From: Deltaproteobacteria bacterium
Lineage (GTDB): Bacteria > Desulfobacterota > RBG-13-43-22
Reading direction: 5' to 3'
Assembly: GCA_016219225.1 (NCBI GenBank)
Contig: JACRBX010000155.1
Span: forward strand, 1-53,704
DNA: 53,704 bases
Under the pieces are notes generated by a model. The model was given only the letters and a program-made list of their open reading frames with translations, was not told the DNA's origin and searched no databases. Numbering within the stretch: position 1 is the first letter of the stretch; every line of letters begins with the position of its first letter. The position numbers were made by a program, and so were the translations under genes. This document shows positions 1 through 53,704 of this stretch, piece by piece.

Positions 1-4
1 AACA

Positions 5-102
5 GGTTACTGGTTGCGGGTTACTCGTTACTCGTTCCATTGGAATGAAGAAGATCGATAACGAGCAACGAGAAACAAGTAACCCGTAACGGGCAACGAA
101 AG
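5..102. repeat. Heptad repeat arrays, inverted pair
   Basis: Two runs with a strict 7-bp period. Positions 5-39 hold five units of the type GGTTACT/CGTTACT, and 61-102 hold six units of the type ACGAGCA/ACAAGTA. The second run is roughly the reverse complement of the first, so the pair can fold into an imperfect hairpin. It lies directly upstream of the HD-GYP gene, ending about 5 bp before the likely ribosome binding site. Similar pairs occur at 52635-52706. Confidence 0.8.
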
Positions 103-116
103 ACAGGAGACCTTTA

Positions 117-1220
117 ATGGAGCCAAAACCCAAGATCCTGGTAGTCGATGATGAAGAGCGAAACCTGCGTCTGATGGAGGCCATGCTTATCCCCCTGGGA
201 TACGAGGTGTTAAAAGCCCAGAATGGGGAAGAGGCCCTGAATAGGGTTAAAGAAAATCCACCGGACGTGATTTTGCTGGACATCATGATGCCCAGGATGG
301 ACGGCTATGAAGTGGCCCGGCGTTTAAAAGAAAAGGAAGAGACCCGACTTATCCCTGTTGTCATGGTAACGGCCTTGCGGGATGTGGAAGACCGGATTAA
401 AGCCCTGGATGTGGGGGCCGATGATTTTTTGAGCAAGCCGGTGGAAAAGATCGAACTCCGGGCCCGGGTTCAGTCCCTGGTCAAGGTCAAGGCCTATTAC
501 GATCACATGAAAAATTACCAGAGAGACCTGGAAGCCGAAGTGGCCCGGAGAACCGAACAACTCCAGAAGGCCTTTCTGCGGATCAAGATTGCCTCTCTGG
601 ACACCATTTACCGCCTTTCCCGGGCAGCGGAATTTAAAGATGAAGAAACCGGTGCCCACATTCAGCGCATGAGCCAATATGCCGCGACTGTGGCTCGAAC
701 CCTGGGATTAAACGAGAAAACCGTAGAATCGATCCTCTATGCCGCACCCATGCACGATGTGGGCAAGATCGGTATCCCGGACCGGATCCTGCTGAAACCG
801 GGGAAATTAAACGACGAAGAATGGAAGATCATGAAACAGCATACCACGATGGGGGCACATATCCTGGGAGGGTCTCAGGCCGGCTTCATTAAATTAGGAG
901 AAGTCATTGCCCTGAGCCATCATGAGAGGTGGGATGGCAGCGGCTATCCAAGAGGATTATCGGGAAAAAAGATCCCGCTGGCCGGACGCATCACAGCCAT
1001 TGCCGATGTCTTTGACGCCCTGACTTCGAAACGTCCTTACAAGGAGATTTTCTCCGTAGAAAAATCCTATGAAATCATCCGGGAGGGCCGGGGAACCCAT
1101 TTTGATCCTCAGGTTGTGGAGGCCTTCTTTCTTGCCCAGAAAGAGATCCTGGACATCAAGGAAAAATTCAAGGATGAAAAAGAGAGTTTTCTGGTACAAA
1201 CAGCCGGGGAAATAAGATGA
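117..1220 (+). CDS. Two-component response regulator with HD-GYP output domain
   Basis: A cytoplasmic signalling protein of 367 residues. Residues 5-125 form a CheY-like receiver with the acidic pair D11/D12, phospho-acceptor D55, T85 and K107. A coiled-coil linker (about 126-160) leads to an HD-GYP domain. That domain has the metal-binding HD pair at 213-214 and the motif HHERWDGSGYP at 268-278, which is typical of cyclic-di-GMP phosphodiesterases. All signature residues are present, so the protein is probably active. This two-domain layout is common in Desulfobacterota. No histidine kinase is adjacent, so the partner is unknown. The ATG at 117 is preceded by AGGAGA with good spacing. Confidence 0.92.
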   Translation: MEPKPKILVVDDEERNLRLMEAMLIPLGYEVLKAQNGEEALNRVKENPPDVILLDIMMPRMDGYEVARRLKEKEETRLIPVVMVTALRDVEDRIKALDVGADDFLSKPVEKIELRARVQSLVKVKAYYDHMKNYQRDLEAEVARRTEQLQKAFLRIKIASLDTIYRLSRAAEFKDEETGAHIQRMSQYAATVARTLGLNEKTVESILYAAPMHDVGKIGIPDRILLKPGKLNDEEWKIMKQHTTMGAHILGGSQAGFIKLGEVIALSHHERWDGSGYPRGLSGKKIPLAGRITAIADVFDALTSKRPYKEIFSVEKSYEIIREGRGTHFDPQVVEAFFLAQKEILDIKEKFKDEKESFLVQTAGEIR

Positions 1221-1242
1221 TTTTTGGGATTGGGATATTTTG

Positions 1243-2469
1243 ATGAATGATAAAACGCAAGGGATTATGGCCGTTTCTGGAAGTTCAGCGGCCATCTTCT
1301 GGCCGGGGGCCTTTATCTTCGGTTTTCCAGGGGTCATGGGGCCCCTGTGGCAAAATATGTTTCAGGTAGGGAAGGGTCCCATCGGCAATACCCTCTTTTT
1401 TGTCCTGGCCGCGGTCGGTTTTTTTATGTTTTTTGTCGGTCACTGGCAGGAAAGGTTCGGCACCCGCAAGATGATCAGCATCGGGGCCCTCCTCTGCGGT
1501 TTAAATGCCTTTTTGATCGCCTATGCCTCAACGCTGCCGATACTTTATCTCTGGGCTTTTTTGAACGGTACGGCCTCCTGTTTTATCTATATCCCGGCCC
1601 TGACAACGGTTCAGCGCTGGTTTCCGGAAAAGAAGGGCCTGGTTTCAGGAATCGTCAACCTGGCCTTTGGTGCCTCGGCAGCCATCATGGCCCCTGTGTT
1701 CGGGCATCTCCTTAATTCCATGGGTTATTTTACAATGAATATAATCCTGGCCGGGGCAGCCTTGTTGATGGGTGTTGGGGCTGCCTGGTTTACTGGGGTC
1801 CCGGAGATGCATTCAAACCTCCGTCCCAAGGGACAGGACATCCCAGTCCGGCCTATGGAATCAGAAAGGTCATTGACCGTTATTGAAAGTCTTCAGACCA
1901 AAAATTTTTGGTTTCTTTGGCTGACCTGGGCTTTTCAAGGGGCTGCCGGTATTGCCATGGTGGTTCTTTCTGTAAATTTCGGACTGTCCCATGGGCTGGC
2001 CGTCCCCTGGGCGGTTATGATCTTGAGTTCTTTTAATATCACCAACGGCCTGAGCCGGATAATCATGGGATTTCTTTCCGATAAATGGGGAAGGACGGGG
2101 ATCATGAGCCTTACTTTTTTTGCGGCTGGTTGTGCATATTTAATTTTGCCGCACATGAATACCTTCCCGGCCCTGATCATTTTGTCAGCCATTATCGGCT
2201 TCGCCTTTGGAACCTTATTTGCCGTTTCTGCCCCCCTGGTTGCCGATTGTTTTGGGATGAAACACTTCGGGGCCATTTTAGGCCTGGTCTTTACTGCCTA
2301 TGGTTTTCTCTCCGGCATACTCGGCCCTTCTTTGGGTGGCTATCTTCTGGATCTCCTGGATGATAACTACTTCATCGTTTTTAATTATCTGGGGATGTTT
2401 TGTCTCCTGTCCGGTTTTTTTATCCGCCGAGTCGTTCCCCCGGAAAGGGTTCGGAAAATTAAAGTCTAA
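1243..2469 (+). CDS. MFS transporter, OFA (oxalate/formate antiporter) family
   Basis: About 408 residues with 12 predicted membrane helices. It has the loop 2-3 signature around GHWQERFGTRK and a matching loop 8-9 signature SDKWGRTG, giving the two-half major facilitator fold. Sequence style and length fit the OFA family, whose members exchange small carboxylates such as oxalate and formate; the actual substrate cannot be read from sequence. A TTG at 1240 directly precedes the ATG at 1243, and I prefer the ATG. The Shine-Dalgarno site is weak. The gene follows the HD-GYP gene by about 20 bp, so co-transcription is possible. Confidence 0.85.
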   Translation: MNDKTQGIMAVSGSSAAIFWPGAFIFGFPGVMGPLWQNMFQVGKGPIGNTLFFVLAAVGFFMFFVGHWQERFGTRKMISIGALLCGLNAFLIAYASTLPILYLWAFLNGTASCFIYIPALTTVQRWFPEKKGLVSGIVNLAFGASAAIMAPVFGHLLNSMGYFTMNIILAGAALLMGVGAAWFTGVPEMHSNLRPKGQDIPVRPMESERSLTVIESLQTKNFWFLWLTWAFQGAAGIAMVVLSVNFGLSHGLAVPWAVMILSSFNITNGLSRIIMGFLSDKWGRTGIMSLTFFAAGCAYLILPHMNTFPALIILSAIIGFAFGTLFAVSAPLVADCFGMKHFGAILGLVFTAYGFLSGILGPSLGGYLLDLLDDNYFIVFNYLGMFCLLSGFFIRRVVPPERVRKIKV

Positions 2470-2485
2470 GAACAGGGAGAGGTTT

Positions 2486-2770
2486 ATGTTGGAATCCAAG
2501 AAAAAGATGGCCCAAAGTTTTTCTGATTTAAAAGTTGCCCTGGAAAAAGGAAAAGGCTTCCCGGAGGAGATTTTCCCGGTTTTTGAAAAAAGCTGCCAGG
2601 AATTTGCCCGGGAGACCGGAAAATTGCCGGCTGAAATTTTACAGCAATTCCTTGACTTGGTTCAGCGAATAGGAGAAAAGATAAAACAAGGGAATAATCG
2701 GGCGGTTTTTGAACAGATGGAAGAGATGAAAAGGATGAAAAAGTCCTGTCATGACCAATATAAAAAATAG
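2486..2770 (+). CDS. Small helical protein ending in a Cys-His motif
   Basis: A 94-residue, charged, all-helical protein without signal peptide or membrane segment. The start at 2486 has an AGGGAGAGG ribosome site 4-12 bases upstream; longer readings of this frame overlap the transporter gene and look spurious. The C-terminus reads KKSCHDQYKK, which resembles the small XXXCH-type domain proteins of Desulfobacterota, but I cannot confirm membership. It ends 3 bp before the next gene, so the two are probably translated from one message. Function unknown. Confidence 0.7.
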   Translation: MLESKKKMAQSFSDLKVALEKGKGFPEEIFPVFEKSCQEFARETGKLPAEILQQFLDLVQRIGEKIKQGNNRAVFEQMEEMKRMKKSCHDQYKK

Positions 2771-2773
2771 CCA

Positions 2774-3463: not shown

Positions 3464-3483
3464 TTGAATAAAGATGAAATATC

Positions 3484-3513: not shown

Positions 3514-3519
3514 ATACCG

Positions 3520-3996: not shown

Positions 3997-4000
3997 AAAA

Positions 4001-4030
4001 GGTTCAAGGCGCAGGGCTCAAGGTTTAAGC
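4001..4030. repeat. Heptad repeat array
   Basis: Four consecutive 7-bp units of the type GGTTCAA/GGCTCAA immediately downstream of tadA, which ends at 3996. A second short array of CCGAAAT units occupies 4102-4122, directly before the tRNA. Confidence 0.65.
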
Positions 4031-4125
4031 AAAAATCTGTAAATCCTGTCAATAAAATATTTTGAATTTCAAAAAGCCAAACAGATAAGGGTTTGTTAAT
4101 TCCGAAATCCGAAATCGAAACTAAC

Positions 4126-14426: not shown

Positions 14427-14436
14427 TTTCCATTTT

Positions 14437-14464
14437 CGGATTTTGGATTACGGATTTCGGAATG
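14437..14464. repeat. Heptad repeat array
   Basis: Four 7-bp units of the type CGGATTT/TGGATTA directly after tRNA-Ser(GGA). Confidence 0.65.
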
Positions 14465-14503
14465 GGGAAGAAGAATTTTAATGTTAAATTAGCTTTTTGA
14501 AAT

Positions 14504-14685: not shown

Positions 14686-14716
14686 CTTGCGCCTTGTGCC
14701 TTAAGCCTCACGCCTG
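14686..14716. repeat. Heptad repeat array before dnaX
   Basis: Four 7-bp units of the type CTTGCGC/CTTGTGC. The array ends within a few bases of the dnaX start codon, where a ribosome binding site would be expected. Confidence 0.7.
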
Positions 14717-16443: not shown

Positions 16444-16469
16444 TAAGAGGGTTTAATAAGAAAATAACG

Positions 16470-16500
16470 TTGCGGGTTTCTGGTTACGAGTTACGGGTTT
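16470..16500. repeat. Heptad repeat array
   Basis: Four 7-bp units of the type TTGCGGG/TTACGAG between the converging dnaX and hydrolase genes. It is followed at 16532-16569 by a GTGGTGCCCGC...GCGGGCAT hairpin, a family that recurs at 35348-35380. Confidence 0.65.
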
Positions 16501-16570
16501 AAAACCAACCTTACTTTGACATTCGAAATTTTCATGGTTCGTGGTGCCCGCTACAGGCGGGCATGAGAGT

Positions 16571-17281
16571 TTAGCCATGACTGGAATTCCTTCCTTCTTC
16601 TCGGGAAGCCGCTGACTTTTCCCCTACCAGGTAGTTCTGAAACCACTCGGCCGCCAGCCGGGAGACTTCTTCCATGGCCCCCGGTTCCTCAAAAAGATGA
16701 GAAGCCCTGGGGACGATGACCAGCTTTTTTTCGGTTTGAAGCTTCTCCATAGCTTCACGGTTCATTTCGATTACGGGATAATCGTGACCTCCTACGATCA
16801 GGAGGGTTGGGGCCTTCACCAGATAAAGGTCATCTCCGGCCAGGTCCGGACGACCCCCGCGGGATACAATGGCGGAAACAACCAGGGGTCGGGCGGTGGC
16901 GGCCATTAGTGCTGCCGCAGCCCCGGTGCTGGCCCCGTAGTAACCGATGGTCAGGTCCCGGGTGGTCTTGTCGGCCAGAACCCAGTCGGTTACAAAGCCT
17001 AATCGTTCGGCTAAAAGGGGGATATTGAACCTTAAATGTCCGGTGTAGCGATCCTCTGCCTCCTCCTGGGAGGTCAGCAGGTCGAAAAGCAAGGTGGCCA
17101 ATCGGGTTCCATGAAGGTAGCGGGCTACGGACTGATTTCGGGGACTGTGTCGGCTGCTCCCGCTTCCGTGGGCAAAAACCACCAGTCCCTGAGCACCCTC
17201 GGGTATCTTCAGGTCACCTTCCAGAAAAACCTTACCGGCCGAAACCTTGACCGGATATTCTTGAATGTTGGCGGAATGCAT
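16571..17281 (-). CDS. Alpha/beta hydrolase, dienelactone-hydrolase type
   Basis: 236 residues with the alpha/beta hydrolase fold: an oxyanion-type VVFAHGSGSS, nucleophile serine in GASTG, an aspartate in GGHD and a histidine in ASHLF. The substrate is unknown. It is the last gene of a three-gene minus-strand operon with a phosphoribosyltransferase and a PNPOx-like protein; related hydrolases are often found next to, or fused with, such phosphoribosyltransferases. An AAGGGACC ribosome site precedes the ATG. Confidence 0.82.
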   Translation of the reverse strand: MHSANIQEYPVKVSAGKVFLEGDLKIPEGAQGLVVFAHGSGSSRHSPRNQSVARYLHGTRLATLLFDLLTSQEEAEDRYTGHLRFNIPLLAERLGFVTDWVLADKTTRDLTIGYYGASTGAAAALMAATARPLVVSAIVSRGGRPDLAGDDLYLVKAPTLLIVGGHDYPVIEMNREAMEKLQTEKKLVIVPRASHLFEEPGAMEEVSRLAAEWFQNYLVGEKSAASREEGRNSSHG

Positions 17282-19265: not shown

Positions 19266-19286
19266 GGCGACGATTTTTTGAAACAG

Positions 19287-19411
19287 GTAGGGTGGGTGAA
19301 GTGAAACGGAACCCACCACATAATAAATGCCTTGTACCCCTTGTGGGTTATGAATTGATTTTGTCATTTTTTATTGGGTTGGTGGGTTGCACTTCGTTTC
19401 ACCCACCCTAC
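19287..19411. repeat. REP-A inverted pair (GTAGGGTGGGT family)
   Basis: Two copies of a 31-32 bp repeat face each other: GTAGGGTGGGTGAAG...ACCCACCA at 19287-19318 and the inverse at 19381-19411. Each copy forms a GGTGGGT/ACCCACC stem. The family occurs at least eight times between 19287 and 21491, around and inside a RAYT gene. Confidence 0.85.
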
Positions 19412-19524
19412 GGGAACTGCTGGCTAAGACAAAAAATTTTTTGGCCACTCCCGTGCACTGTGAAGAATGCGGAGAATTTGAATTTTATTTCTTTTGATCC
19501 GATAAGCGGTGAGGTAAGGTGTCC

Positions 19525-19854
19525 TTACGATAACCAGTTCGCGAGTTCCCTTTTCGATAACTCAATGCGTTTCGCACCCCATCGGTCGCGCACTTGTGCA
19601 TGCGGAATAAAAACGGTATTGGGGTTGTCCGCTTCCTTTATGGCGGTTTTGACCTGTCGCCGGAACCATCTATCATGTTCTTCAGTTTCCCCTTTTGACA
19701 GTTCGACTTTAAAGGGTAACCCCTTTTCAATAACCACCTGGTTTATAAAGAGCCGTATTGCCTCACTTATTGAGAGTCCCAGGCCTTGTAAAAGATTCTG
19801 GGCCTTGGCTTTTACTGCGGAATCTATTTTTGAGCGAACCATCGTCTCCGGCAT
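19525..19854 (-). CDS. RelB/DinJ-family antitoxin, apparently orphan
   Basis: 109 residues. The N-terminal ribbon-helix-helix (RSKIDSAVKAKAQNLLQGLG) and ISEAIRLFINQVV match RelB/DinJ antitoxins, followed by a toxin-binding tail. No RelE/YafQ toxin is seen downstream: after the stop there are about 110 bp without a frame, then a REP-A repeat. A strong promoter (TTGACC, 17 bases, TATAAT) lies at 19894-19922. It may be a solitary antitoxin left after loss of the toxin. Confidence 0.8.
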   Translation of the reverse strand: MPETMVRSKIDSAVKAKAQNLLQGLGLSISEAIRLFINQVVIEKGLPFKVELSKGETEEHDRWFRRQVKTAIKEADNPNTVFIPHAQVRDRWGAKRIELSKRELANWLS

Positions 19855-19893
19855 ATCACGCCCCCTTATTAACTCTTTGTTTCATTCGTTGAG

Positions 19894-19922
19894 ATTATAA
19901 AATGGAAAAAAATTCGGGTCAA
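19894..19922 (-). promoter_or_regulatory. Sigma-70 promoter for the relB-type gene
   Basis: On the minus strand TTGACC (19922-19917) and a consensus TATAAT (19899-19894) are separated by exactly 17 bases, about 40 bp before the antitoxin start. Confidence 0.6.
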
Positions 19923-20051
19923 GTGGGATTTTCGTCTTATCGAAACTAAATAAAAAAGAAAAAAGATCAAATAAACCAGATAGACCAGATGGGGTAAGCC
20001 GCTTCTGATCAAAATTAAAAAAACTTGACAGACGTTTCTGGTTGGAAGCGT

Positions 20052-20083
20052 GTAGCGTGGGTGGAACGCAGTGCAACCCACCA
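20052..20083. repeat. REP-A copy
   Basis: A single GTAGCGTGGGTGGAA...ACCCACCA copy of the REP-A family in an otherwise AT-rich spacer. Confidence 0.75.
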
Positions 20084-20404
20084 ATAAAATAAACAGGTAC
20101 AGTTATTCTTTTAAATCAAGCAAAGATCAAAAATAGCCTCCAATGGGGTTAAACTATGAAGTGAATCGAAATCCCAATTCATCCCCAACCAAATATTTGT
20201 GCAAATGGCACATGCTTTTGTGCAATATTCATTCTTCCTTCCGGCTTCATCACACCTAACTGCATAAAATAAAAATATAATTTAATTTATTTTCCCATAG
20301 CATAGTTTTTGCATTAAAAAAATTATTTTTCATTTTCACGACGGTCATTTTTACCAAATGTGACATTGTTGTACTAACCCTTGCTTCTCCCGATAGGAGG
20401 TTTT
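20084..20404. other. AT-rich spacer, no gene seen
   Basis: No coding frame or palindrome of note. The last part carries TAGGAGG (20394-20400), the ribosome site of the truncated gene at 20405. Confidence 0.4.
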
Positions 20405-20477
20405 ATGAAAGCAAAAACACATCTTTTTTTATTGTCGTTTTGGTTTGTTGGGCAACGGTAGCGATGGCAGCCCTGTA
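20405..20477 (+). pseudogene. Truncated exported-protein gene (signal peptide only)
   Basis: An ATG with a TAGGAGG site opens a frame MKAKTHLFL that, after a one-base shift near a T7 run, continues as VVLVCWATVAMAA, a plausible Sec signal peptide ending in an AMA cleavage site. A stop codon and then a REP-A repeat follow at once. This looks like the 5' end of a gene whose body was lost where REP copies inserted. Confidence 0.5.
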
Positions 20478-20482
20478 GCCCT

Positions 20483-20685
20483 GTAGGGTGGGTGAAGTGC
20501 TAACGGAACCCACCGATTTGTGGGATTGTTTTATCCACATCGATTCGGCCATCGGAAATTGGTGGGTTTCGATCTTCTCAACCCAATTCCCGGGCTATGG
20601 GTGGGGTGCGATATGTTTTCAATAAATGGTGGGTTCCGCTTCTCTGCTGATATCGGTGGGTTTCGCTTCGCTGCACCCACCCTAC
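20483..20685. repeat. REP-A cluster upstream of RAYT gene
   Basis: A forward copy at 20483-20515, degenerate copies around 20560-20640, and an inverted copy at 20655-20685 ending in CCACCCTAC just before the RAYT start. Confidence 0.8.
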
Positions 20686-20696
20686 GATGAGGCGTG

Positions 20697-21413
20697 ATGG
20701 GACAATATCGACGAAATTATGTTCATGGTGGGACTTTTTTCTTTACGGTGGTGACTTATCTGCGCCAACCAATTTTAAATGAAAGGACCATCTCTCTTTT
20801 ACAAGAGGGATTTAAATCATGTATTTCGAGAAAGATTTTTTCTGTTGAAGCGATGGTAATCCTTCCGGATCATCTTCATTGCATTTGGCAACTACCGCTG
20901 GATGACAATGATTATTCCTCTCGATGGAAATTCATCAAGGCCTTCTTTACCAAAGGATATTTTCTATTAACGGGTGAAAATGGTATTGGTGGGTTCCATT
21001 TCATTCCACCCACCCTACGGGATTTAACAAAATGTAGATCGGGTCGAGCATTACCGCAGCCCATCGATAATTTTGATGCATCATGTAGGGTGGGTGAAGC
21101 ATGTAGGGTGGGTGGAGCGATAGCGCAACCCACCATTCAAAAACCCACCAACACCAAACCCACCGCCTCCATGCAAAAAAAGGGGGAAAAAGGAATCTGG
21201 CAACGGCGGTTTTGGGAGCACACGATCCGGGATGAAAGGGATTATCGAAATCATTGCGATTATATCCATTATAATCCGGTGAAGCATGGATTGGTCAAAT
21301 ATCCCCGGGATTGGCCGCATTCCAGCTTTCATGAATTTGTTGAAAAAGGTCTTTATCCCGAATCTTGGAGTGGATCGGTGAATGCTTTTCCAGATGAGGT
21401 CGGGGGAGAATGA
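20697..21413 (+). CDS. REP-associated tyrosine transposase (RAYT) expanded by REP repeats
   Basis: About 238 residues of the Y1/IS200-like transposase family that mobilises REP sequences. The HUH-type motif LPDHLHCIW and the catalytic tyrosine region DYIHYNPVKHGLV are present, as is the conserved KGIWQRRFWEHTIRDE. The usual RAYT length is about 180 residues; here residues about 98-158 are extra and are encoded by REP-A repeats (20988-21020 and 21085-21135) plus a third repeat-like stretch between them. The frame stays open throughout. The start is ATG 20697, with GTG 20694 as alternative. Confidence 0.88.
   Translation: MGQYRRNYVHGGTFFFTVVTYLRQPILNERTISLLQEGFKSCISRKIFSVEAMVILPDHLHCIWQLPLDDNDYSSRWKFIKAFFTKGYFLLTGENGIGGFHFIPPTLRDLTKCRSGRALPQPIDNFDASCRVGEACRVGGAIAQPTIQKPTNTKPTASMQKKGEKGIWQRRFWEHTIRDERDYRNHCDYIHYNPVKHGLVKYPRDWPHSSFHEFVEKGLYPESWSGSVNAFPDEVGGE
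20988..21135. repeat. REP-A copies inside the RAYT coding sequence
   Basis: An inverted copy GGTGGGTTCCATTTC...CCACCCTACGG (20988-21020), a related GTAGATCGGGTCGAGC stretch near 21031, a partial GTAGGGTGGGTGAAG (21085) and a full copy (21103-21135) are read in frame as protein. Confidence 0.85.
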
Positions 21414-21460
21414 TGGATGTGCTCCCCCGCTTTTTATTGATGGGTTCTATGACAACTGTT

Positions 21461-21491
21461 GGTGGGTTGCGCTTCGCTGCACCCACCCTAC
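21461..21491. repeat. REP-A copy at the broken end of an ATPase fragment
   Basis: An inverted copy GGTGGGTTGCGCTTCG...CCACCCTAC lying exactly where recognisable ATPase sequence begins. Confidence 0.8.
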
Positions 21492-21906
21492 GGGAGCTGG
21501 TAAAAGCTGCCCAAAGGAAACGGCCCTGGAAATATATAACAGCATAAGGGGATATCCTTATTATGTCCAGAAACTGGCCTCGATTGCCTGGGATCTGACG
21601 GCAAGACAATGCACCACGGATACGGTAAGGGCTGCTTTTCGGATATTGCTTCCTATGGAGGCGCAGGACTTTGAAGGTATCTGGAGCGGGTTGACCTTAA
21701 TTCAGAGGGGTTTGCTCAAAGCCCTGGCCCAAGAGCCGACCATCTCCCCTTATGCCAGGGAATTTCTGGAGAGGCATCGTCTTTCTGTAGGCGGGACTCA
21801 GAGGGCGATGAATGGTCTTCTTTCCAGAGATCTGATCGAAAGAGACGATAAGAATATTTATAGATTAACGGATCCGGTAATGGGTGTGTGGCTGAAGGAA
21901 AACTGA
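21492..21906 (+). pseudogene. C-terminal fragment of an archaeal-type AAA ATPase
   Basis: The recognisable part starts just after a REP-A repeat with ALEIYNSIRGYPYYVQKLA and ends in a winged-helix LLSRDLIERDDKNIYRLTDP. This is the C-terminal half of ATPases of the archaeal ATPase (PF01637-like) group. The P-loop half is missing. The open frame extends back to 21382 but that part is REP sequence and the tail of the RAYT gene. Probably non-functional. Confidence 0.65.
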
Positions 21907-25545: not shown

Positions 25546-25659
25546 GGCTATGGGCTATAGGCAATAGGCTATGGGCAGGGTAAAATTGTTTTTTTCGCCT
25601 ATAGCCTCTTGAAACTTGCCTCTTGAAACCTGAAACTTGGAACTTGAAACTCGCAACTT
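25546..25659. repeat. Two heptad arrays before gatB
   Basis: 25546-25580 holds five units of the type GGCTATG/GGCAATA. 25597-25659 holds nine consecutive units, from GCCTATA and GCCTCTT through GAAACTT, GGAACTT and GCAACTT. The start of the second array is the reverse complement of the first, allowing a hairpin. gatB starts 22 bp later. Confidence 0.85.
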
Positions 25660-27250: not shown

Positions 27251-27709
27251 ATGAATATTTCCCGATTAAATTTAAGTGGATATCCGTCTTTTATAACAAC
27301 CAAAACGATGAACAATTATCCTTTTTTCTCGAATAATGCAAATGCTGAATGTTTGGTTTCAGGTCTGCTTTTTGGCCGGAGGAACAACTGGCTTGATCTT
27401 GTTGCCTTTGTAATTATGCCTGACCATCTTCATTTGATTATTATTCCAAAAGAGAAAAATGTTTCCCAATGTTTGCACAGTATTAAGAGCTTCTCAAGCA
27501 AAGAGATCAACAAAAATAGCCAGCACAAAGGTTCAGTATGGCAATCCAGTTTTAGGGATTTAACGTTATGGTCAGAAGAAGTAGTCATCGAAAAGATAAA
27601 TTATATTCATAATAATCCGGTTAGAAAAGAAATGGTTTCTGATCCGGGGAATTATCGATATTCATCGGCGAATACAAGATATGAGAAGGAATTGTTTAGA
27701 TCATTTTAA
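27251..27709 (+). CDS. REP-associated tyrosine transposase (RAYT), short type
   Basis: 152 residues of the Y1 transposase fold. The HUH motif is in MPDHLHLIII and the catalytic tyrosine in INYIHNNPVRKEMV; the conserved VWQSSFRDLTLWSEE corresponds to the WQ...FWE region. The length is normal for this subgroup and the frame is intact, so it may be active. It is flanked by direct copies of a palindrome pair that is probably its substrate. It is clearly different from the RAYT at 20697. No Shine-Dalgarno site is visible. Confidence 0.85.
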   Translation: MNISRLNLSGYPSFITTKTMNNYPFFSNNANAECLVSGLLFGRRNNWLDLVAFVIMPDHLHLIIIPKEKNVSQCLHSIKSFSSKEINKNSQHKGSVWQSSFRDLTLWSEEVVIEKINYIHNNPVRKEMVSDPGNYRYSSANTRYEKELFRSF

Positions 27710-27882: not shown

Positions 27883-28017
27883 TGAGGCGTTCGTAAAAAG
27901 TCCAAAAGCGCCGATTTACGTCATTCCCGTGAAAACGGGAATCCAGTGTTTTTAATTAGTTACATATAGCCTGGATTCCCGCCTTCGCGGGAATGACGAG
28001 TTTTTACGAGACCATCA
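27883..28017. mobile_element. MITE-like element with possible target duplication
   Basis: The left end is TGAGGCGTTCGTAAAAA and the right end, inverted, TTTTTACGAGACCATCA, enclosing two facing CGTCATTCCCG palindromes (27919-27946 and 27971-27998). ATTGTGAG occurs at 27879-27886 and again at 28018-28025, compatible with a target-site duplication, although the left copy overlaps the end of the element. Confidence 0.65.
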
Positions 28018-28081
28018 ATTGTGAGATTTGAATTATTTTTAGAAAATAGGTCAGGCATCTTGCCTGACAACAGGACTTCTA

Positions 28082-29146: not shown

Positions 29147-29175
29147 CCCGGGGAGCATGACGAACCATGAAAAAG

Positions 29176-29264
29176 CGAATATCGAATATCGAATATCGAA
29201 TATCGAATGACGAAGGAGAGTTTCTTTTAAACTCCGAACTCCGAACTCTGAACTCCGAACTCAG
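29176..29264. repeat. Two heptad arrays before the heptose kinase gene
   Basis: 29176-29217 holds a nearly perfect run of CGAATAT units. 29230-29264 holds five AACTCCG-type units. The gene starts 15 bp later. Confidence 0.85.
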
Positions 29265-29279
29265 TCTTAAGAGGCTCTT

Positions 29280-30281: not shown

Positions 30282-30290
30282 CTCGAAATA

Positions 30291-30325
30291 GGGATCAGGG
30301 ATCAGGGATCAGGGGTCGGGGGGCT
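30291..30325. repeat. Heptad repeat array
   Basis: Three identical GGGATCA units and two divergent ones between the heptose kinase and epimerase genes. Confidence 0.8.
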
Positions 30326-30370: not shown

Positions 30371-31351
30371 ATGGCCAATTATTTAGTCACCGGCGGGGCG
30401 GGATTCATCGGGTCCCATATTGCCGAAGCGCTTTTAAAAGAAGGGCATCTGGTTCGGGTCCTGGATAACTTTTCAACCGGTCATCGGAGAAATCTCCAGG
30501 AAATTCAGGCCGCTTCTCCATCGAGTCTGGAAATTATCGAAGGGGATGTACAAGACCGGAAGGCCTGCGATCAGGCGGTTTCCGGAATGGACTTTGTTTT
30601 TCATGAAGCGGCCCAGATTTCCGTGCCCAAATCGGTTGATGACCCGGAAAGCACTCAGGCGGTCAATATTCAGGGAACGTTGAATGTGCTGCTGGCCTGC
30701 AAAAAAGCCGGGATTCAAAGGGTGGTTTTGGCCAGTTCGACGGCTGTTTACGGGGACAGTCCCCTGGAAGAAAAAACGCCTAAACCTAAACGGGAATCTA
30801 TGACCCCCAATCCCCTTTCCCCCTATGCCTTAAGCAAATTAGTGGGCGAATATTATTGCCGCCTTTTCTCCAGACTCTATGACCAGCAGGCCGTGGCCTT
30901 GCGCTATTTTAATGTCTTTGGACCGAGACAGGACCCCAATTCGGAATATGCCGCCGTGATCCCCAAATTTATTGAACGCCTCCTCCAGGACAGCCCGGCG
31001 ATAATCTATGGAGATGGAAAGCAATCCAGGGATTTCGTTTTTGTCGGGGATGTGGTCCAGGCCAATCTTAAGGCCTGCCGTCAGGCCGGGATCGAAGGAG
31101 AGGTTTTTAATGTGGCTTCCGGGCGGTCGTATACCCTTTTACAATTATTGGGGCACTTACAAAAAATTATTCAATCCGCCCAGGAACCGGTTTTTGCACC
31201 GGCCAGAGCGGGCGACATCCGGTATTCCAAGGCGGACATTCAAAAGGCCAGAAAAACGCTGGGTTTTCAACCGGGGGTGGGGCTTCGTCAAGGCTTGAAA
31301 GCGACCGTTGAATATATGAAAAAGGCGCAAGGCGTGAGGCGTGAGGCGTGA
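30371..31351 (+). CDS. NAD-dependent nucleotide-sugar epimerase (UDP-glucose 4-epimerase type)
   Basis: An extended short-chain dehydrogenase of 326 residues with Rossmann motif TGGAGFIGSH (8-17), catalytic S/T in ASSTAVYG, YxxxK in YALSK and the RYFNVFGPRQ substrate loop. Likely a UDP-glucose/GlcNAc 4-epimerase for surface polysaccharide; exact specificity is not readable. AAGGA precedes the ATG. The final residues QGVRREA are encoded by a heptad array (31322-31353), so the original C-terminus was probably different. Confidence 0.85.
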   Translation: MANYLVTGGAGFIGSHIAEALLKEGHLVRVLDNFSTGHRRNLQEIQAASPSSLEIIEGDVQDRKACDQAVSGMDFVFHEAAQISVPKSVDDPESTQAVNIQGTLNVLLACKKAGIQRVVLASSTAVYGDSPLEEKTPKPKRESMTPNPLSPYALSKLVGEYYCRLFSRLYDQQAVALRYFNVFGPRQDPNSEYAAVIPKFIERLLQDSPAIIYGDGKQSRDFVFVGDVVQANLKACRQAGIEGEVFNVASGRSYTLLQLLGHLQKIIQSAQEPVFAPARAGDIRYSKADIQKARKTLGFQPGVGLRQGLKATVEYMKKAQGVRREA

Positions 31352-31353
31352 GG
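31322..31353. repeat. Heptad array overlapping the 3' end of the epimerase gene
   Basis: Four units of the type AAGGCGT/GAGGCGT that run through the stop codon of the epimerase. Three weaker GCTCAAA-type units follow at 31366-31386. Confidence 0.8.
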
Positions 31354-31425
31354 AAAAAAATAAATGCTCAAAGCTGAAAGTTCACAGGAAGCAACTATAA
31401 ATCGGCGCGAGGAGGAACAACCAAG

Positions 31426-32736: not shown

Positions 32737-33268
32737 ACCTAAAGAACCTTTACCGGCGAAACTCCTTATCGCCCTCATCTATAAGGAAAGGGCAGCGGCC
32801 CAGTCCGGGTGGATGGCCATTGAAAAAACCTGGGGGGCCCTGGATTTTCTTTCCGAGGTGAGGCCCTTCGATTATACCGGCTACTATGAACAAGAGATGG
32901 GCCGTCCGTTATATCGCCGCTGGGCCACCTTCCGGGAACTGGTCCCTCAAGACCGTTTGGCGGAAATTAAATGGCAGGCCCTGGATTTGGAAAAGCAGTG
33001 GCTTTGCGACGAGAAGCGCCGGTTGAATCTCGATCCAGGGTTGTTAACGGCCGAAAGGCTGGTCCTGGCCACCGGAAAGAATTACAGCCATCGTATTTAT
33101 CTCGGAAAAGGAATCTTTGGGGATTTGACCCTGGTTTTTACTAAAGGGAGCTATCAGCCCTTGCCCTGGACCTATCCGGATTATCGAGATGAACCGTCTA
33201 TCTGGATGTTTAATAAGATCAGAGAAAAATATTTGAAAGAAATTGCGGATTGCGGAATGCGGAATTAA
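32729..33268 (+). CDS. DUF4416 family protein
   Basis: 179 residues matching DUF4416 (opening KLLIALIYKE, then FDYTGYYEQEMG, and late KGSYQPLPWTYPDYR). Function unknown; in Desulfobacterota it regularly sits beside yicC and gmk, as here. The start is a TTG overlapping the end of ugd, which suggests translational coupling. The last residues ADCGMRN are encoded by a heptad array (33243-33266). Confidence 0.85.
   Translation: MSKPKEPLPAKLLIALIYKERAAAQSGWMAIEKTWGALDFLSEVRPFDYTGYYEQEMGRPLYRRWATFRELVPQDRLAEIKWQALDLEKQWLCDEKRRLNLDPGLLTAERLVLATGKNYSHRIYLGKGIFGDLTLVFTKGSYQPLPWTYPDYRDEPSIWMFNKIREKYLKEIADCGMRN
33243..33266. repeat. Heptad array overlapping the 3' end of the DUF4416 gene
   Basis: Three units TTGCGGA, TTGCGGA and ATGCGGA that encode the last residues and run up to the stop codon. 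Confidence 0.75.
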
Positions 33269-35028: not shown

Positions 35029-35093
35029 CAATATTTCTCCTTCCATGCCAGCAATGGCCCTTTAAATCCTGTCTTGAATTAAGGGGGGATATA

Positions 35094-35149
35094 GGCAATA
35101 GGCTATAGGCTATAGGCTATAGGCGAGGGGCGAGGGGCGAGGGGCGGGC
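35094..35149. repeat. Heptad repeat arrays, two unit types fused
   Basis: Eight consecutive 7-bp units: GGCAATA, three GGCTATA, three GGCGAGG and GGCGGGC. The phase is kept where the unit type changes, which shows how one unit can drift into another. Confidence 0.85.
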
Positions 35150-35302: not shown

Positions 35303-35334
35303 ACAAGCCTGGAAGGTAACTCCAGGCTTGTTTT
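35303..35334 (+). terminator. Rho-independent terminator
   Basis: An 11-bp perfect stem ACAAGCCTGGA/TCCAGGCTTGT with a 7-base loop, followed by TTTT on the plus strand. It probably ends the yicC-remA-gmk transcript about 275 bp after gmk. Confidence 0.75.
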
Positions 35335-35435
35335 CGTACTAAACCCTCATGCCCCTCTGGGGCACCACGAAATATGAAAATAGACCAGTCAAAGGCTTAT
35401 TTAGGCACGGGTCAGTCACAAAGCCTGACACAGGG

Positions 35436-36326: not shown

Positions 36327-37940
36327 TTAAGGGTTCCCTTTTGCCGTATAAAGGACCGGGTCCCCATTGCCGGCAGCAGCCATTAAAGGCATGATAGTCC
36401 GAGGCCCCACGATTCCGTCCGGGGTCAGGCCTATGGACAATTGGAATTTTTGTAATTGTCTTAAAACCTCACCGTCGTAAATCTGATCCTGCCCGGCCGA
36501 CACGACCCGTCCCTGGGTCAGCGTCAAATGCCGTTCGAGCCAGGCCACCATGGACCCGCGGCTTCCCGGTTTAAGGTCTTGCTGATACTCCTGAGGCACC
36601 CGCCAAAGGAGAAGATAATCCCCGGACCAGCGACCGATAATTTCTTTCAGATCAACGGTCCTGGTCTCGTTCCCGATAACAAGAGTGGCCGTTTCTCCCT
36701 GCAAGGAAGTCAAGGTAGCATAATATTCAATCTCTTTTTCATCTAAAAGCGTCAGGACCGCAGGTTTATTCATCTGCCGGAGGGTGGTGAGACTCCCTTT
36801 GCCTTTCAGGCAGCGCAGACCCTGTGCCCTAGCCTGTTCACAGATATCCCCCTTTGGATATTGGAGGTGCCATTGCCTGAAAAGGGCCAGGTAGGCCGCC
36901 TTTTTGGCGCTTTCACCCGACTGATCAGCCGGCCGCCTGAGGTCGGCCTTTCTTTGGGGGGGGCCCCCCACCTTTGGAGCAAGGGCTTGGGCGGCCGGTC
37001 GGACCGGGGTCTTGAACAAAGGCCATGATCCGTAGAGGGTATAGACGATGCCAAGGGCCGACAGGAGAACCAGGAGAAAACCAGCCAGCAGGGATTGAAA
37101 GATTACGGGACTTAGACCTCGACGGATTTTTTCACCGGTTATTTCACGGGCGGCCGTTGCCAGGGTTTTTTTATCAACCCGGTCTTTCCCCTGAACGAAG
37201 GCCCCCAGCAGGGCCCTTTCGCATATTACATTGATCAATCTCGGGACTCCACCACTCAACCGGACCAGCTTTTTTAATGTCGGGGATGGGAATAATCGGT
37301 CATGGGCCAGCCCGGATAGAGACAAACGATAATTCACATAACCGGGGATTTCTGCCCTGGAGAGGGGACCGAGGTGATACCGGGCCGTTACCCGCTGCGA
37401 AAGCTGGCGAAGCTGAGGTTGTAACAACAATTCTCTGAGTTCCGGTTGTCCGATCATGACCACCTGGAGGAGTTTATGCTCCCTGGTTTCGAGGTTGGTC
37501 AGCAAGCGGATCTGCTCGAGCACATCCGGTTTCAGGTTCTGGGCTTCTTCCAGGATGAGAACGGCCCGACGGCCTTTGGCATGGACATCAAGGAGATATT
37601 CGTTGATGCGGGTTATAAAGACCTTGATACTTTGGTTTCCTTCGGGGTAACGGATTCCGAATTCATCGCAGATCGTGGCTAACAGTTCCAGGGCAGTCAA
37701 CTTCGGGTTCAGGATAAAGGCCACCTCGATGTCTTCGGGCAAAAGTTCAATCAATCGGCGGCAGGCTGTTGTTTTACCGGTCCCGACATCACCGGTCAGC
37801 AAAACAAACCCGACATTACTTTCAATGCCATAGAGCAGATGGGCCAGGGCCTCCTGATGTCCGGCACTCATGAAAAAATAATGGGGGTCCGGAACGATGG
37901 AAAAAGGCTTTTGGGTAAGACCGAAATAATCCTCGTACAT
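36327..37940 (-). CDS. ExeA/GspA-like AAA ATPase with peptidoglycan-binding domain
   Basis: 537 residues: an AAA domain with Walker A GDVGTGKT (50-57) and Walker B AVLILEEAQNL, one membrane helix (about 280-305), a periplasmic linker with a C39-peptidase-like segment, and a C-terminal PG_binding_1 domain (LQKFQLSIGLTPDGIVGPRT). It couples ATP use to remodelling of peptidoglycan for secretin assembly. It pairs with gspB and is transcribed divergently from rlmB. Confidence 0.9.
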   Translation of the reverse strand: MYEDYFGLTQKPFSIVPDPHYFFMSAGHQEALAHLLYGIESNVGFVLLTGDVGTGKTTACRRLIELLPEDIEVAFILNPKLTALELLATICDEFGIRYPEGNQSIKVFITRINEYLLDVHAKGRRAVLILEEAQNLKPDVLEQIRLLTNLETREHKLLQVVMIGQPELRELLLQPQLRQLSQRVTARYHLGPLSRAEIPGYVNYRLSLSGLAHDRLFPSPTLKKLVRLSGGVPRLINVICERALLGAFVQGKDRVDKKTLATAAREITGEKIRRGLSPVIFQSLLAGFLLVLLSALGIVYTLYGSWPLFKTPVRPAAQALAPKVGGPPQRKADLRRPADQSGESAKKAAYLALFRQWHLQYPKGDICEQARAQGLRCLKGKGSLTTLRQMNKPAVLTLLDEKEIEYYATLTSLQGETATLVIGNETRTVDLKEIIGRWSGDYLLLWRVPQEYQQDLKPGSRGSMVAWLERHLTLTQGRVVSAGQDQIYDGEVLRQLQKFQLSIGLTPDGIVGPRTIMPLMAAAGNGDPVLYTAKGNP

Positions 37941-40047: not shown

Positions 40048-40082
40048 GCTGAAAGCTAAAAACTGATGGCTGACTGCTCCCA
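40048..40082. repeat. Heptad repeat array before the dehydrogenase gene
   Basis: Five units of the type GCTGAAA/GCTGACT, ending 16 bp before the start codon. Confidence 0.65.
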
Positions 40083-44066: not shown

Positions 44067-44942
44067 GTGGTCGAACTCTCCCGCAAGTAGCTTAATTGTC
44101 TCGATAGTCTCATGTCAGGATCAGTGCTAAAGCGAGCCGCACGCAATGTGTTGATGCCAGGGTCCAATTTTGCCCTGAACAACGTGCTACATTTTGACAA
44201 TTGCGCAATGGTAAGATTCTGAGCTCCTCGTAACAAAATGATAAGACTTAGCTTTTTTAAGAAAGAAGTATAAAAGAAGGAAAAGCCAGAGTCAAGGTGA
44301 AACATACGGAATGTACCAAATTTAGGAATAGGGCAGTTGATTATCTCCATTACAAATCGAAATAGTTGATTTTTAGTCTAACTCAGACTCTCAACTTGTA
44401 GGTGACATCGTTATATTGGGGGGGTGGAGAGGTAATTTTAGTGAAGATTTGAGAGTTCCTTTCCTGGAGTCCTCAACCGCCCATTCGGAAAAAATAGAAA
44501 TGTACAGACCGTGATCGCAGATAAAAAGGCCCTGATATTGGGAAATAGAATCTATTTTAATTCTTGCTTGAAATCAGGGAGCTCTAAGAGCCTTGGCCAT
44601 TATAGGTGGATAGATAATAAGCCAGCTATACCCGGTGAAGAAAAGTTGTTTTTAAAAAATCGATCACTTGAACCCTCGAATCCTCGACCCCTTCCACTAT
44701 TAACCGGTCTTATAAAAATAACAAATTTAAGTGGTTTCTCTTTTTAGAATTTTCTATTTCATTGAAAATGTTAAAACTTTTTGATATCATCCAGAAAACT
44801 GTTCAATAATTTGTTGGGCCAAACATGAAAAGGAAGATTAAGAGTCAAATATATATTTTTGGATTGATGCCGACAATCGGCAACGCCAAGTTCGCCTGGG
44901 TGCGGCACACTATCCGCCACCTCGCGAGGCCTAATTAGAAGT
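44067..44942. other. 876-bp spacer between the divergent nuclease genes
   Basis: Short frames (44027-44350 minus, 44511-44747 plus) lack ribosome sites and family resemblance. A weak heptad-like array of CTTGAAC/CCTCGAA units is at 44667-44694. The length is unusual for a simple divergent promoter region and could hold a small RNA, but I see no clear structure. Confidence 0.5.
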
Positions 44943-50114: not shown

Positions 50115-50184
50115 ATCCTGTCATGAATGAACCTTGAACCAAGCGGTTCCGTAGGGCGGGATTCCAATTTTATTTGGAGGGGAA

Positions 50185-50445: not shown

Positions 50446-50855
50446 TACTGGTAGATACGGGACCCATTATCGGATTGTTTGATCCTTCAGATCCTTTCCA
50501 TAGCCGATCGGTTAAGATATTGCAACAAATCCACGAACCCCTTTACTCCACCCTTCCTGTGTTGACCGAAGCCTTTCATATGCTTAACCCCGGTAGTCTT
50601 GGAGCCGACAACTTACGTTCTTTTGTAATAAGGGGGGGATTGTCTATTTGGCCAATGGATGAAAAAGCTCTTCTACGCGCCTTTGAGTTAATGAAAAAGT
50701 ATGCCGATCACCCGATGGATCTGGCTGATGCTTCATTGGTTTCAGCCTCCGAGGCGTTAAAGACGCGACGGGTATTCACCATAGACCGCGACGATTTTGA
50801 GACCTACCGGGTTAAGATAGGACATCGCACCTATCCGATTGAGATAATCAAATAA
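50442..50855 (+). CDS. VapC-type PIN-domain toxin
   Basis: 137 residues with the PIN-domain ribonuclease acidic residues: D5 (VDTGPIIGLFD), E43 (LTEAFH), D96 (LADASLVSASE) and the late TIDRDDF. It probably cleaves tRNA or rRNA when freed from the antitoxin. The start is a GTG overlapping the antitoxin stop (GTGA). Confidence 0.88.
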   Translation: MILVDTGPIIGLFDPSDPFHSRSVKILQQIHEPLYSTLPVLTEAFHMLNPGSLGADNLRSFVIRGGLSIWPMDEKALLRAFELMKKYADHPMDLADASLVSASEALKTRRVFTIDRDDFETYRVKIGHRTYPIEIIK

Positions 50856-50971
50856 TCGACCTTCTTGTTAGACAGGGTTTACCTGATTACTTGTTTTTTT
50901 TGTCTTCCCGGAAGAAAGGCAAAAACCCAATGCCTGTGCCGCTGCCAATGCCGCCCTTTTCAGGTTGATCT

Positions 50972-52573: not shown

Positions 52574-52634
52574 GCGATTACCTTTTTTTGCCAAGAAGAT
52601 TCATCTCTATCATAAACTCCGTTACAGGGTGAGT

Positions 52635-52706
52635 ACTCGTTGCTCGTTGCAGGTCGCTCGTTGCTCGTCAAAACCGGGAACCAGTAACAAGTAACTAGTA
52701 ACAAGG
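52635..52706. repeat. Heptad repeat arrays, inverted pair
   Basis: 52635-52669 has five units of the type GCTCGTT/ACTCGTT, and 52679-52706 has four units of the type AACAAGT/AACTAGT. As at 5-102, the two runs are roughly inverted relative to each other, and the unit family (GTTACTCG type) is the same as at the other end of the window. Confidence 0.8.
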
Positions 52707-52717
52707 ATATTTCCAAC

Positions 52718-53440
52718 TTAATCTCCTTTAACGGGATAAACCAGAGAACGAAGCCAGCCCATAAGGGTATTATCCTTGAAATCATTTTTTTCTTTCTTTT
52801 TAATCTCGGCCTTCAGCCCGGACATGAAGGTAAACCAGTCCTCTCGCGTCTGCATGGGTCGGTCGGGGTCGAGGGTTTTCAGGGCCACGGCCGGATTACC
52901 GGCGGCGACCACGTTGGGCGGTATGTCCTTGACGACCACGGCCCCGGCCCCGATGATGCTGTTGTCCCCGATGGTCACCCCTTTGCAGACAATGGCGCTG
53001 TCGCCGATCCAGACGTTATGGCCGATCCGGACCGGTAAAGACTGCCCCACAAACTGACCCCGATTATAAAGATCGTGCCAGTCGGCATCGGTGACATAGA
53101 CCCGCTGGGCCAGCATACAATTGTCGCCTATGGTAATTTCCGTGGCCGCGCTGATGCGCACCCCGGCACAGATCAGACAATATCTGCCGATGACGATGCG
53201 GCCCTCTCCGGCCCGGTTCGACCAGACCGTGAAGCGGACCTTGTTGTCCGGGGTGGCGATGATGTTGGCGTAGTCGCCCAGGAAGACCGGCCCCCCGTTG
53301 ATTTCAACATGCCAGGGTTTCATCACGGTGATTTCCCGGCCCAGTTTTTCAAACTGGGGCCGCAGGAAATGCTGGCTATATCCGGTTTCAATCCGGTTGA
53401 TCAGCCGTTTAATGAGGTAAGGACGATGATCTCTCCGCAT
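52718..53440 (-). CDS. Left-handed beta-helix (hexapeptide) acyltransferase
   Basis: 240 residues. Hexapeptide repeats run from about residue 80 to 190 (IVIGRYCLICAGVRI, ITIGDNCMLAQ, VRIGHNVWIGDSAIV, VTIGDNSIIGAGAVV), ending in the family signature NVVAAGNPA. It probably transfers an acetyl or similar group to a sugar or small molecule. The ATG at 53440 follows a TTG at 53446; either may be used. It lies upstream of the radical SAM gene on the same strand, separated by the heptad pair. Confidence 0.85.
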   Translation of the reverse strand: MRRDHRPYLIKRLINRIETGYSQHFLRPQFEKLGREITVMKPWHVEINGGPVFLGDYANIIATPDNKVRFTVWSNRAGEGRIVIGRYCLICAGVRISAATEITIGDNCMLAQRVYVTDADWHDLYNRGQFVGQSLPVRIGHNVWIGDSAIVCKGVTIGDNSIIGAGAVVVKDIPPNVVAAGNPAVALKTLDPDRPMQTREDWFTFMSGLKAEIKKKEKNDFKDNTLMGWLRSLVYPVKGD

Positions 53441-53494
53441 CGCCAATCATCCTTTTTCTTCGACCGGGGCCATGGATGACATCTCGCGGGCTGA

Positions 53495-53704
53495 TCAATC
53501 ACTACCGGAAAGGGACCGGGCCAAAGCAAATTCGAACCGGGGGGAAGCCCCGGAGGCACTTAAGTTCCAAAGACCGTGATTGAACAGGCCGCTGGCCGGG
53601 GTCAATTCGTTCAGGGCGTCATGGGCCAGAAGCACGGCTGCGGCCGTCCAGGAGGTCTTTTCCTCCGGCCAGATGACGGCATCGGGAAAGGTAACGCCCA
53701 TCCA
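53495..53704 (-). CDS. Partial protein running off the window end
   Basis: The last 68 or more residues of a gene whose start lies beyond 53704. The frame is open to the edge. The visible part contains WPEEKTSWTAAAVLLAHDAL and ends after a short alanine/serine-rich tail. I do not recognise the family with confidence; the TWTAAA-type helix resembles C-termini of alpha/alpha-barrel enzymes. It is upstream of the acyltransferase on the same strand, about 55 bp away. Confidence 0.55.
   Translation of the reverse strand, partial: WMGVTFPDAVIWPEEKTSWTAAAVLLAHDALNELTPASGLFNHGLWNLSASGASPRFEFALARSLSGSD

What the first reader, a model, noticed from the sequence alone, without database searches (positions are those of the whole stretch)
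1..53704. At least 15 intergenic arrays with a strict 7-bp period but different unit sequences
Heptad arrays are visible at 5-102, 4001-4030, 4102-4122, 14437-14464, 14686-14716, 16470-16500, 25546-25659, 29176-29264, 30291-30325, 31322-31386, 33243-33266, 35094-35149, 40048-40082, 44667-44694 and 52635-52706. Units differ between loci (GGCTATA, CGAATAT, AACTCCG, GGGATCA, GAGGCGT, GTTACTC and others), yet the period is always 7. At 35094-35149 and 25597-25659 the unit type changes while the phase is kept. Cyanobacteria are known to have heptameric STRR repeats; an equivalent with locus-specific units in this type of organism is not something I can name. A shared 7-bp step with free sequence suggests a replication or repair mechanism with a fixed slip length, or a protein that counts helical spacing.
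Basis: partly seen in the sequence, partly recalled or inferred. Interest (0 to 1): 0.85.

Follow-up and report, generated by a model that had tools for sequence, protein, structure and literature searches.

The report
Genome-wide seven-base repeat arrays
This uncultured Deltaproteobacterium carries hundreds of short repeat arrays between its genes, almost all built from seven-letter words; the words come from a small shared genome-wide pool rather than being made afresh at each place, which makes this an unusually rich case of a known but poorly understood kind of bacterial DNA repeat.

Summary
11 of the 15 listed places pass a strict test; 16470 is borderline, and 4001 and 4102 are at chance level. 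40048 has no period-7 signal and 44667 is period 8. In 816 kb of the same genome, period 7 gives 189 intergenic arrays; every other period from 4 to 15 except 14 (= 2x7) gives at most 7 in all. They fill about 6% of the intergenic DNA scanned. Units are not free: top families are 3-4 times larger than for shuffled units, with the same words in sister species. Within a family, unit variants show almost no local memory: units of one array are about as different as units from different loci. Rare mutations are equally frequent at 'core' and 'degenerate' columns (0.0160 vs 0.0166). So in-place slippage alone does not explain them. They look like dispersed, register-locked repeats with a shared pool of units. 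They often form inverted (hairpin) pairs, often sit beside a ~50-bp palindromic module (290 copies), and turn over fast between species. Why 7 (8 is second in relatives) remains open. Best filed as a new variant of bacterial heptameric repeats (STRR, TAACTGA, GGGAATC types).

The parts
2..36 (.). heptad array, GTTACTC/GTTACTG type; left arm of an inverted pair with 60-98
   Evidence: inverted-partner score 17.8 vs control 6.2; fold z -5.6
60..98 (.). heptad array, AACGAGC type; right arm of the same hairpin, ending about 20 bp before the ORF at 117
14427..14469 (.). heptad array, TTTCGGA type, just after the tRNA; same family at the same place in G001
14686..14715 (.). heptad array CTTGCGC CTTGTGC CTTAAGC CTCACGC just before dnaX; unit-by-unit alignable with G001 (TTGCAC CTTACAC CTTAAAC CTTTCGC)
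16469..16499 (.). borderline heptad array (GTTACGG type) 3' of the palindromic module at 16528-16574 (minus strand)
   Evidence: score 10.8, 0.3 expected by chance
16528..16574 (-). palindromic module X
   Evidence: nhmmer profile hit; fold z -3.2
25546..25576 (.). heptad array, GGCTATA type, upstream of gatB
25608..25658 (.). heptad array, CTTGAAA type, upstream of gatB
29156..29176 (+). degenerate 3' half of module X, directly before the next array
   Evidence: pattern match with 5 mismatches
29171..29217 (.). heptad array, CGAATAT type (mtnA-hldE spacer)
   Evidence: different arrays in the same spacer of G001 (period 8) and G002 (GGCnATn period 7)
29230..29262 (.). heptad array, AACTCCG type
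30290..30322 (.). heptad array, GGGATCA type
31322..31353 (.). heptad array, AAGGCGT/GAGGCGT type, overlapping the 3' end of the epimerase-like gene
   Evidence: G002 has GCGTGAG units here too
33242..33265 (.). heptad array, ATTGCGG type, overlapping the 3' end of the ORF ending at 33268
35091..35146 (.). heptad array, GGCTATA to GGCGAGG with phase kept
   Evidence: score 40.2; absent from G001 and G002
35332..35381 (+). palindromic module X
   Evidence: nhmmer profile hit; fold z -3.5
52636..52668 (.). heptad array, CTCGTTG type; left arm of an imperfect hairpin
   Evidence: fold z -2.0
52672..52705 (.). heptad array, AACAAGT/AACCAGT type; right arm of the same hairpin

Best explanation
The arrays are members of a small set of dispersed, register-locked heptamer repeat families. 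New arrays probably appear mostly by copying heptamer-containing segments from elsewhere in the genome, sometimes as part of short composite palindromic repeats that include module X and inverted array arms. Units are then reshuffled between in-phase arrays of a family by strand slippage, template switching or ectopic recombination, which changes copy number in steps of 7 and keeps one genome-wide pool of unit variants. They accumulate where extra DNA does least harm (spacers between co-directional genes, just after stop codons) and are lost quickly. Shown: period 7 only, limited families, no local memory for most unit variants, inverted pairs, module association, slot lengths in steps of 7 at the commonest slot, low conservation between species. 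Inferred: copying as the route of spread and recombination as the mixer. Not explained: why independent families settled on 7 (8 second), for which a preferred slip or loop length is the simplest guess. No host function is needed by the data.
For: Period spectrum. Units in families and shared with relatives. 205 sites of GGCTATA-type and 196 copies of CNCCGAACNCTNAACNMCGAAC genome-wide, the latter with 0 mirror hits. Most variable columns have intraclass correlation near 0 and unit identity within arrays equals that between arrays for GGCTATA (0.79-0.82 vs 0.81), with no shared unit order (z -0.2). Rare-variant rate equal at core and degenerate columns, p 0.82, as expected for a mixed pool of a few master variants rather than a selected core. 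Module X in 290 copies here, 81 in G002, 8-14 in other family members; 67/232 arrays within 100 bp of X against 13% of random intergenic sites, and 54/80 X with an array. Slot lengths between X and the next TTATTTTCG: 25-27, 30, then 34 five times, 41. Inverted partner arrays at emp. p<=0.04 in 20% (own) and 40% (G001/2), direct partners 8% and 14%. Few own arrays have a same-family counterpart in the G001 spacer; 9 of 13 array-bearing spacers have none there. Depleted in divergent spacers (8% vs 23%), 65/232 within 10 bp of an upstream gene end.
Against: Some columns do show within-array concerted letters (AACTCCG T4 icc 0.48, GTTACTG T6 0.53, GGTTCAA T3 0.65) and TTT/GGG subfamilies keep a unit-specific interruption, which simple mixing does not predict unless subfamilies spread as whole arrays. 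Only about a third of arrays lie near module X, so another carrier is needed for the rest. No target-site duplication or flank palindrome was found, and no mobilising enzyme has been linked to the arrays. Dispersal alone does not explain why a dozen families share the period.
Confidence: 0.5

Rival explanations
1. In-place polymerase slippage with a preferred 7-nt step: each array grew at its own locus from a chance duplication, 7 being the length of DNA held by the polymerase, with loops of that size escaping mismatch repair.
For: Sharp period; copy number differs by whole units between equivalent slots (27, 34, 41); over-representation of heptamers in many bacteria and the polymerase-footprint proposal are in the literature (PMC4692102, PMC4679880).
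Against: Most variable columns show no local memory; units belong to shared families; 196 dispersed copies with the same unit-specific interruption.
Confidence: 0.22
2. Selected binding arrays: each heptamer is a site for a sequence-specific DNA- or RNA-binding protein that occupies 7 nt per monomer (a cold-shock or OB-fold type reader has been suggested for TAACTGA repeats), acting on leaders, terminators or chromosome organisation.
For: Mismatches concentrate in fixed unit columns in all 9 families tested (p <= 0.0015); the same columns vary in G001 for several families and, for AACTCCG, in distant genomes; arrays avoid divergent spacers; GGGATCA arrays are mostly in sense orientation (12:3, p 0.035, before correction for nine families).
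Against: Rare mutations hit core and degenerate columns equally; eight of nine families show no significant orientation bias; hairpin mismatches are not G-U biased on the transcript strand (32 GU vs 25 AC); fast turnover between species; arrays lie next to genes of unrelated function.
Confidence: 0.15
3. A dedicated writer, such as a reverse transcriptase or terminal transferase using short RNA templates, synthesises heptamer repeats in the manner of telomerase.
For: Fixed step with a limited vocabulary; four RVT_1-type matches (three over the family cut-off) in this genome.
Against: G001 has arrays but no RVT_1 match, and G003-G006 have none; no template RNA or co-located gene was found; Rfam finds only two tRNAs in the stretches searched.
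Confidence: 0.03
4. Chance or assembly artefact.
For: Four or five of the listed places are at or near chance level or not period 7.
Against: Markov-3 shuffles give about 0-1 array per period; same phenomenon in independently assembled genomes.
Confidence: 0.01

Closest known systems
TAACTGA direct repeats of marine Beggiatoaceae, Cyanobacteria and Bacteroidetes (PMC4679880)
   Same: Heptamer direct repeats, mostly intergenic, 169 sets in one genome, scattered distribution among lineages, origin unexplained.
   Different: There one fixed heptamer, with single-base relatives rarely or never repeated, and mostly just upstream of start codons; here many families with several common variants each, inverted pairs and a palindromic module.
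GGGAATC / GGGGA(C/T)T heptameric repeats of Xanthomonas and Nostoc (PMC4692102)
   Same: 183-186 heptamer repeat patterns per Xanthomonas genome, most between the same genes in the two species compared but with large length and sequence variation, some as inverted pairs; heptamer over-representation noted.
   Different: Single G-rich quadruplex-type unit there; here most families are not G-rich and positions are poorly conserved.
Cyanobacterial STRR heptanucleotides (Calothrix; cited in PMC4692102)
   Same: Several different tandem heptanucleotides in one genome.
   Different: Three described there; far more families here, in another phylum. Detail beyond the citation is from memory.
Geobacter metallireducens multicopy elements with heptanucleotide repeats (PMC2700814)
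   Same: Dispersed elements made of 4-5 tandem heptanucleotides (GGGACCG x4 in 49 places; MTYCTGA x5), and octanucleotide elements, also in a deltaproteobacterium.
   Different: Two heptamer families there, treated as regulator sites; no genome-wide period-7 excess was seen in the passages read.
REP/BIME palindromic elements and RAYT transposases (PMC2817692)
   Same: Module X is a short palindromic intergenic repeat with >100 copies, and RAYT-like Y1 transposase matches are present (4 in this genome).
   Different: No link between a RAYT and X or the arrays was tested; the arrays are periodic direct repeats, not a fixed palindrome.

Membership tests
Bacterial heptameric simple repeats (STRR-like, broad sense) | tandem units of exactly 7 nt | tested here: met
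   189 intergenic arrays at period 7, at most 7 in all at each other period except 14
Bacterial heptameric simple repeats (STRR-like, broad sense) | intergenic location, many loci per genome | tested here: met
   189 of 209 arrays intergenic by a simple gene caller
Bacterial heptameric simple repeats (STRR-like, broad sense) | copy number variable between strains | not testable with these tools
   no second strain of the species; only equivalent slots within the genome differ by whole units
TAACTGA repeat family | unit TAACTGA with near relatives absent as repeats | tested here: not met
   unit families listed do not include TAACTGA and have several common variants each
G-quadruplex heptamer repeats (Xanthomonas/Nostoc type) | every array G-rich, GGGN(A/T)-type unit | tested here: not met
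   GGGATCA-type is only 23 of 232 arrays
REP/BIME (for module X only) | short palindromic intergenic repeat, >100 copies | tested here: met
   290 copies at <=3 mismatches, mirror control 0; fold z -3.2 and -3.5
REP/BIME (for module X only) | mobilised by a RAYT encoded in the genome | not tested
   four Y1_Tnp matches exist but none was linked to X

The most novel reading that the evidence does not exclude
Clade-specific vocabularies of heptamers are written or read by a conserved machine with a 7-nt (in some relatives 8-nt) step: the step is inherited across the phylum while the words drift, as when GTTACTG is frequent in this family and the reversed word GTCATTG in another.
Probability: 0.12. 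Interest if true: 0.88.

Novelty: new variant of a known kind. Interest (0 to 1): 0.52.

Why it matters
Heptamer excess in bacterial genomes has been known for years with only one untested idea (polymerase footprint). A genome with perhaps 1,400 arrays (extrapolated from 189 in 816 kb), many unit families and almost one period gives the numbers needed to separate slippage, dispersal and selection. Here it shows that in-place slippage alone does not account for the unit patterns, while the preference for 7 survives as a separate, sharper question. It may also give markers for strain typing in these uncultured groups.

Tried and rejected
Insertion into palindrome centres or with target-site duplications: flanks are no more complementary or alike than shuffled pairs. 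RNA hairpin selection: no G-U excess; some arrays fold better than shuffles (window 1-105, z -5.6), others do not (29160-29270, z +1.6). Positional hotspots between species: not significant on 33 orthologous spacers (p 0.39). Known RNA family: only two tRNAs in the stretches searched. Adjacent clustering of variable unit positions: weak (t 1.8). Phylum-wide common lexicon: supported for AACTCCG (40 of 395 genomes, mirror word rare) but not general, since the mirror of GTTACTG is common in other clades. A first claim that 12 families explain 93% of arrays was softened: column-permuted arrays reach about 65% under a similar rule (10 seeds; 91% real), and for distant genomes the excess is small.
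Full report
The window is one whole contig (C155) of a 5.93-Mb, 353-contig metagenome assembly (98.9% complete, 4.8% contaminated by the tool's estimate). Its gatB gene is closest to Deltaproteobacteria metagenome bins from groundwater (L001 83%, L002 75%). L001 and L148 (G002) are both 6,200-bp contigs with the gene at the mirrored place, so G002 is very probably the bin NC_groundwater_1539; G004 likewise matches L002.

Check of the observation. With a +1/-1.2 lag score, 14 period-7 arrays in 11 of the 15 listed places reach a score where Markov-3 shuffles give at most 0.15 per window. 16469-16499 is borderline (0.3), 4098-4116 (0.45) and 3999-4029 (1.3) are at chance level by themselves, 40048-40082 shows no period-7 segment and 44667-44694 is period 8. 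Over 816 kb of the genome (a fraction 0.868 coding by a simple gene caller written here) period 7 gives 189 intergenic and 20 coding arrays. Periods 4-13 and 15 give at most 7 in all, and period 14 gives 54. Arrays cover 6.9 of 108 kb of intergenic sequence. G001 gives 72 at period 7 and 30 at period 8, no other non-multiple above 9. In 78 gatB loci from elsewhere in the deltaproteobacterial groups, 7 (59) and 8 (21) are again the leading short periods, and single genomes differ: L027 is mostly period 8, L023 mostly period 7.

Anatomy. Clustering unit consensuses at 6/7 identity gives families of 47, 32, 30, 19, 16, 14 and 14 arrays out of 232, against about 13 for the largest shuffled family. 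Main families are GGCNATR, AACKCYG, GTTRCKS, GGTNCAR, YGAATRW, CTTGMAW, GGGNTCR, TTSAGCT and CGGAWTK (family assignment there is lenient). Twenty per cent of arrays in this genome and 40% in G001/G002 have a significant inverted partner within 110 bp; direct partners are 8% and 14%, close to chance in mean score. The pair at window 2-98 folds with z -5.6. A dispersed palindromic module, TATTTTCGnACTAAACCCTCATGCCCC-loop-GGGGCACCACGAAGCATGAAAAT, has 290 copies here (3' half, up to 3 mismatches), 81 in G002, 9 in G001, 8 and 14 in two other family members, and few or none elsewhere. Arrays lie within 100 bp of it in 67 of 232 cases, against 13% of random intergenic positions, usually 5-20 bp on its 3' side. 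The slot between the module and the next TTATTTTCG is 25-27, 30, 34 (five times) or 41 nt among its shorter cases. Arrays are rare in divergent spacers (8% vs 23%), common in co-directional ones (72% vs 63%), and 65 of 232 lie within 10 bp of an upstream gene end.

Do arrays grow in place? If so, units in one array should resemble each other more than units elsewhere. For most variable columns the intraclass correlation is near zero (GGCTATA T4 -0.08; AACTCCG C6 -0.09, G7 -0.02; CGAATAT A6 -0.08, T7 -0.11; GGGATCA A4 0.01; TTGAGCT G3 0.05), with exceptions that mark subfamilies (AACTCCG T4 0.48, GTTACTG T6 0.53, GGTTCAA T3 0.65, C5 0.56, CGGATTT T7 0.46). For GGCTATA, unit identity is 0.79-0.82 within arrays and 0.81 between arrays, and unit order is not shared (z -0.2). 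For CTTGAAA, CGGATTT and CGAATAT some order is shared (z 2.8-3.9), as expected if whole arrays were copied. GTTACTG, GGTTCAA and GGGATCA keep a small excess of within-array identity (0.78-0.82 vs 0.73-0.75). Array detection itself favours likeness within an array, so near-zero values are conservative.

Are the cores selected? Mismatches pile up in fixed columns in all nine families (p <= 0.0015; transversions alone in eight of nine), but related copies are not independent. Splitting variants into common and rare letters, the rare rate per possible letter is 0.0160 at single-letter columns and 0.0166 at multi-letter columns (p 0.82). This fits a pool with a few old variants that are mixed and copied, with no sign of extra constraint on the core; the 8% cut is arbitrary and a weak constraint would be missed. 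Orientation relative to transcription is not significant except for GGGATCA (12:3, p 0.035 uncorrected).

Turnover. Of the own arrays with an orthologous G001 spacer, few have a same-family counterpart; the dnaX spacer is one. On 33 orthologous spacers the presence of arrays is not significantly linked (4 of 13 vs 3 of 20). The mtnA-hldE spacer holds CGAATAT+AACTCCG here, a period-8 array with a complementary stretch downstream in G001, and a GGCnATn pair in G002.

Spread of words. Exact unit classes are shared with sister species (27/43 vs 4.1 by shuffling) and with more distant relatives (18/82 vs 5.0, maximum 13 in 1000 shuffles). AACTCCG x3 occurs in 40 of 395 genomes, its mirror rarely. 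GTTACTG x3 occurs in 12 of 148, but there its mirror is common in other clades. So vocabularies overlap in part and are clade-specific; the step is more constant than the words.

Literature. Heptamer over-representation, the polymerase-footprint idea, TAACTGA, GGGAATC, Calothrix and Geobacter heptanucleotides are described (PMC4679880, PMC4692102, PMC2700814). A full-text search for six of the main words in repeat form found one unrelated paper. What seems new is the number of families in one genome with almost one period, the lack of local memory, and the composite with the palindromic module.

Conclusion. The repeats are real and unusually dense. The best reading is dispersed, register-locked repeat families with unit mixing and fast turnover. 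The reason for the 7-nt step is not solved.

Noticed in passing
window 27251-27709: ORF with a partial RAYT-like Y1 transposase match (27392-27616), close to a REP-like palindrome (CGTCATTCCCG...GGAATCCAG) at 27883-28025 that is repeated many times in the genome.
   Followed up: partly
window 19274-21500: Several copies of a GTAGGGTGGGTGGAACGAAG...CAACCCACC palindromic repeat, also dispersed in the genome.
   Followed up: no
L182 about 10000 and L190 10212-10243: In two genomes of one other family an AACTCCG array appears to sit inside a protein-coding gene at the same place, before a sequence resembling that of UDP-GlcNAc 2-epimerase (recalled, not searched).
   Followed up: no
L186 4625-4770 and 6264-6447: Very long inverted heptad arrays (up to 184 bp) whose phase is kept through the centre; both arms share an AAGG core but have different other letters.
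   Followed up: no
L027: This genome (Eth-SRB2) has six period-8 arrays and one period-7 array in 21 kb, several as inverted pairs (TTGGAATA / ATTCCAAT), so the preferred step may differ between genomes.
   Followed up: no
window 36327-37940: ORF resembling the XrtA/PEP-CTERM-associated ATPase (286.8 bits, below the family cut-off of 324.5).
   Followed up: no
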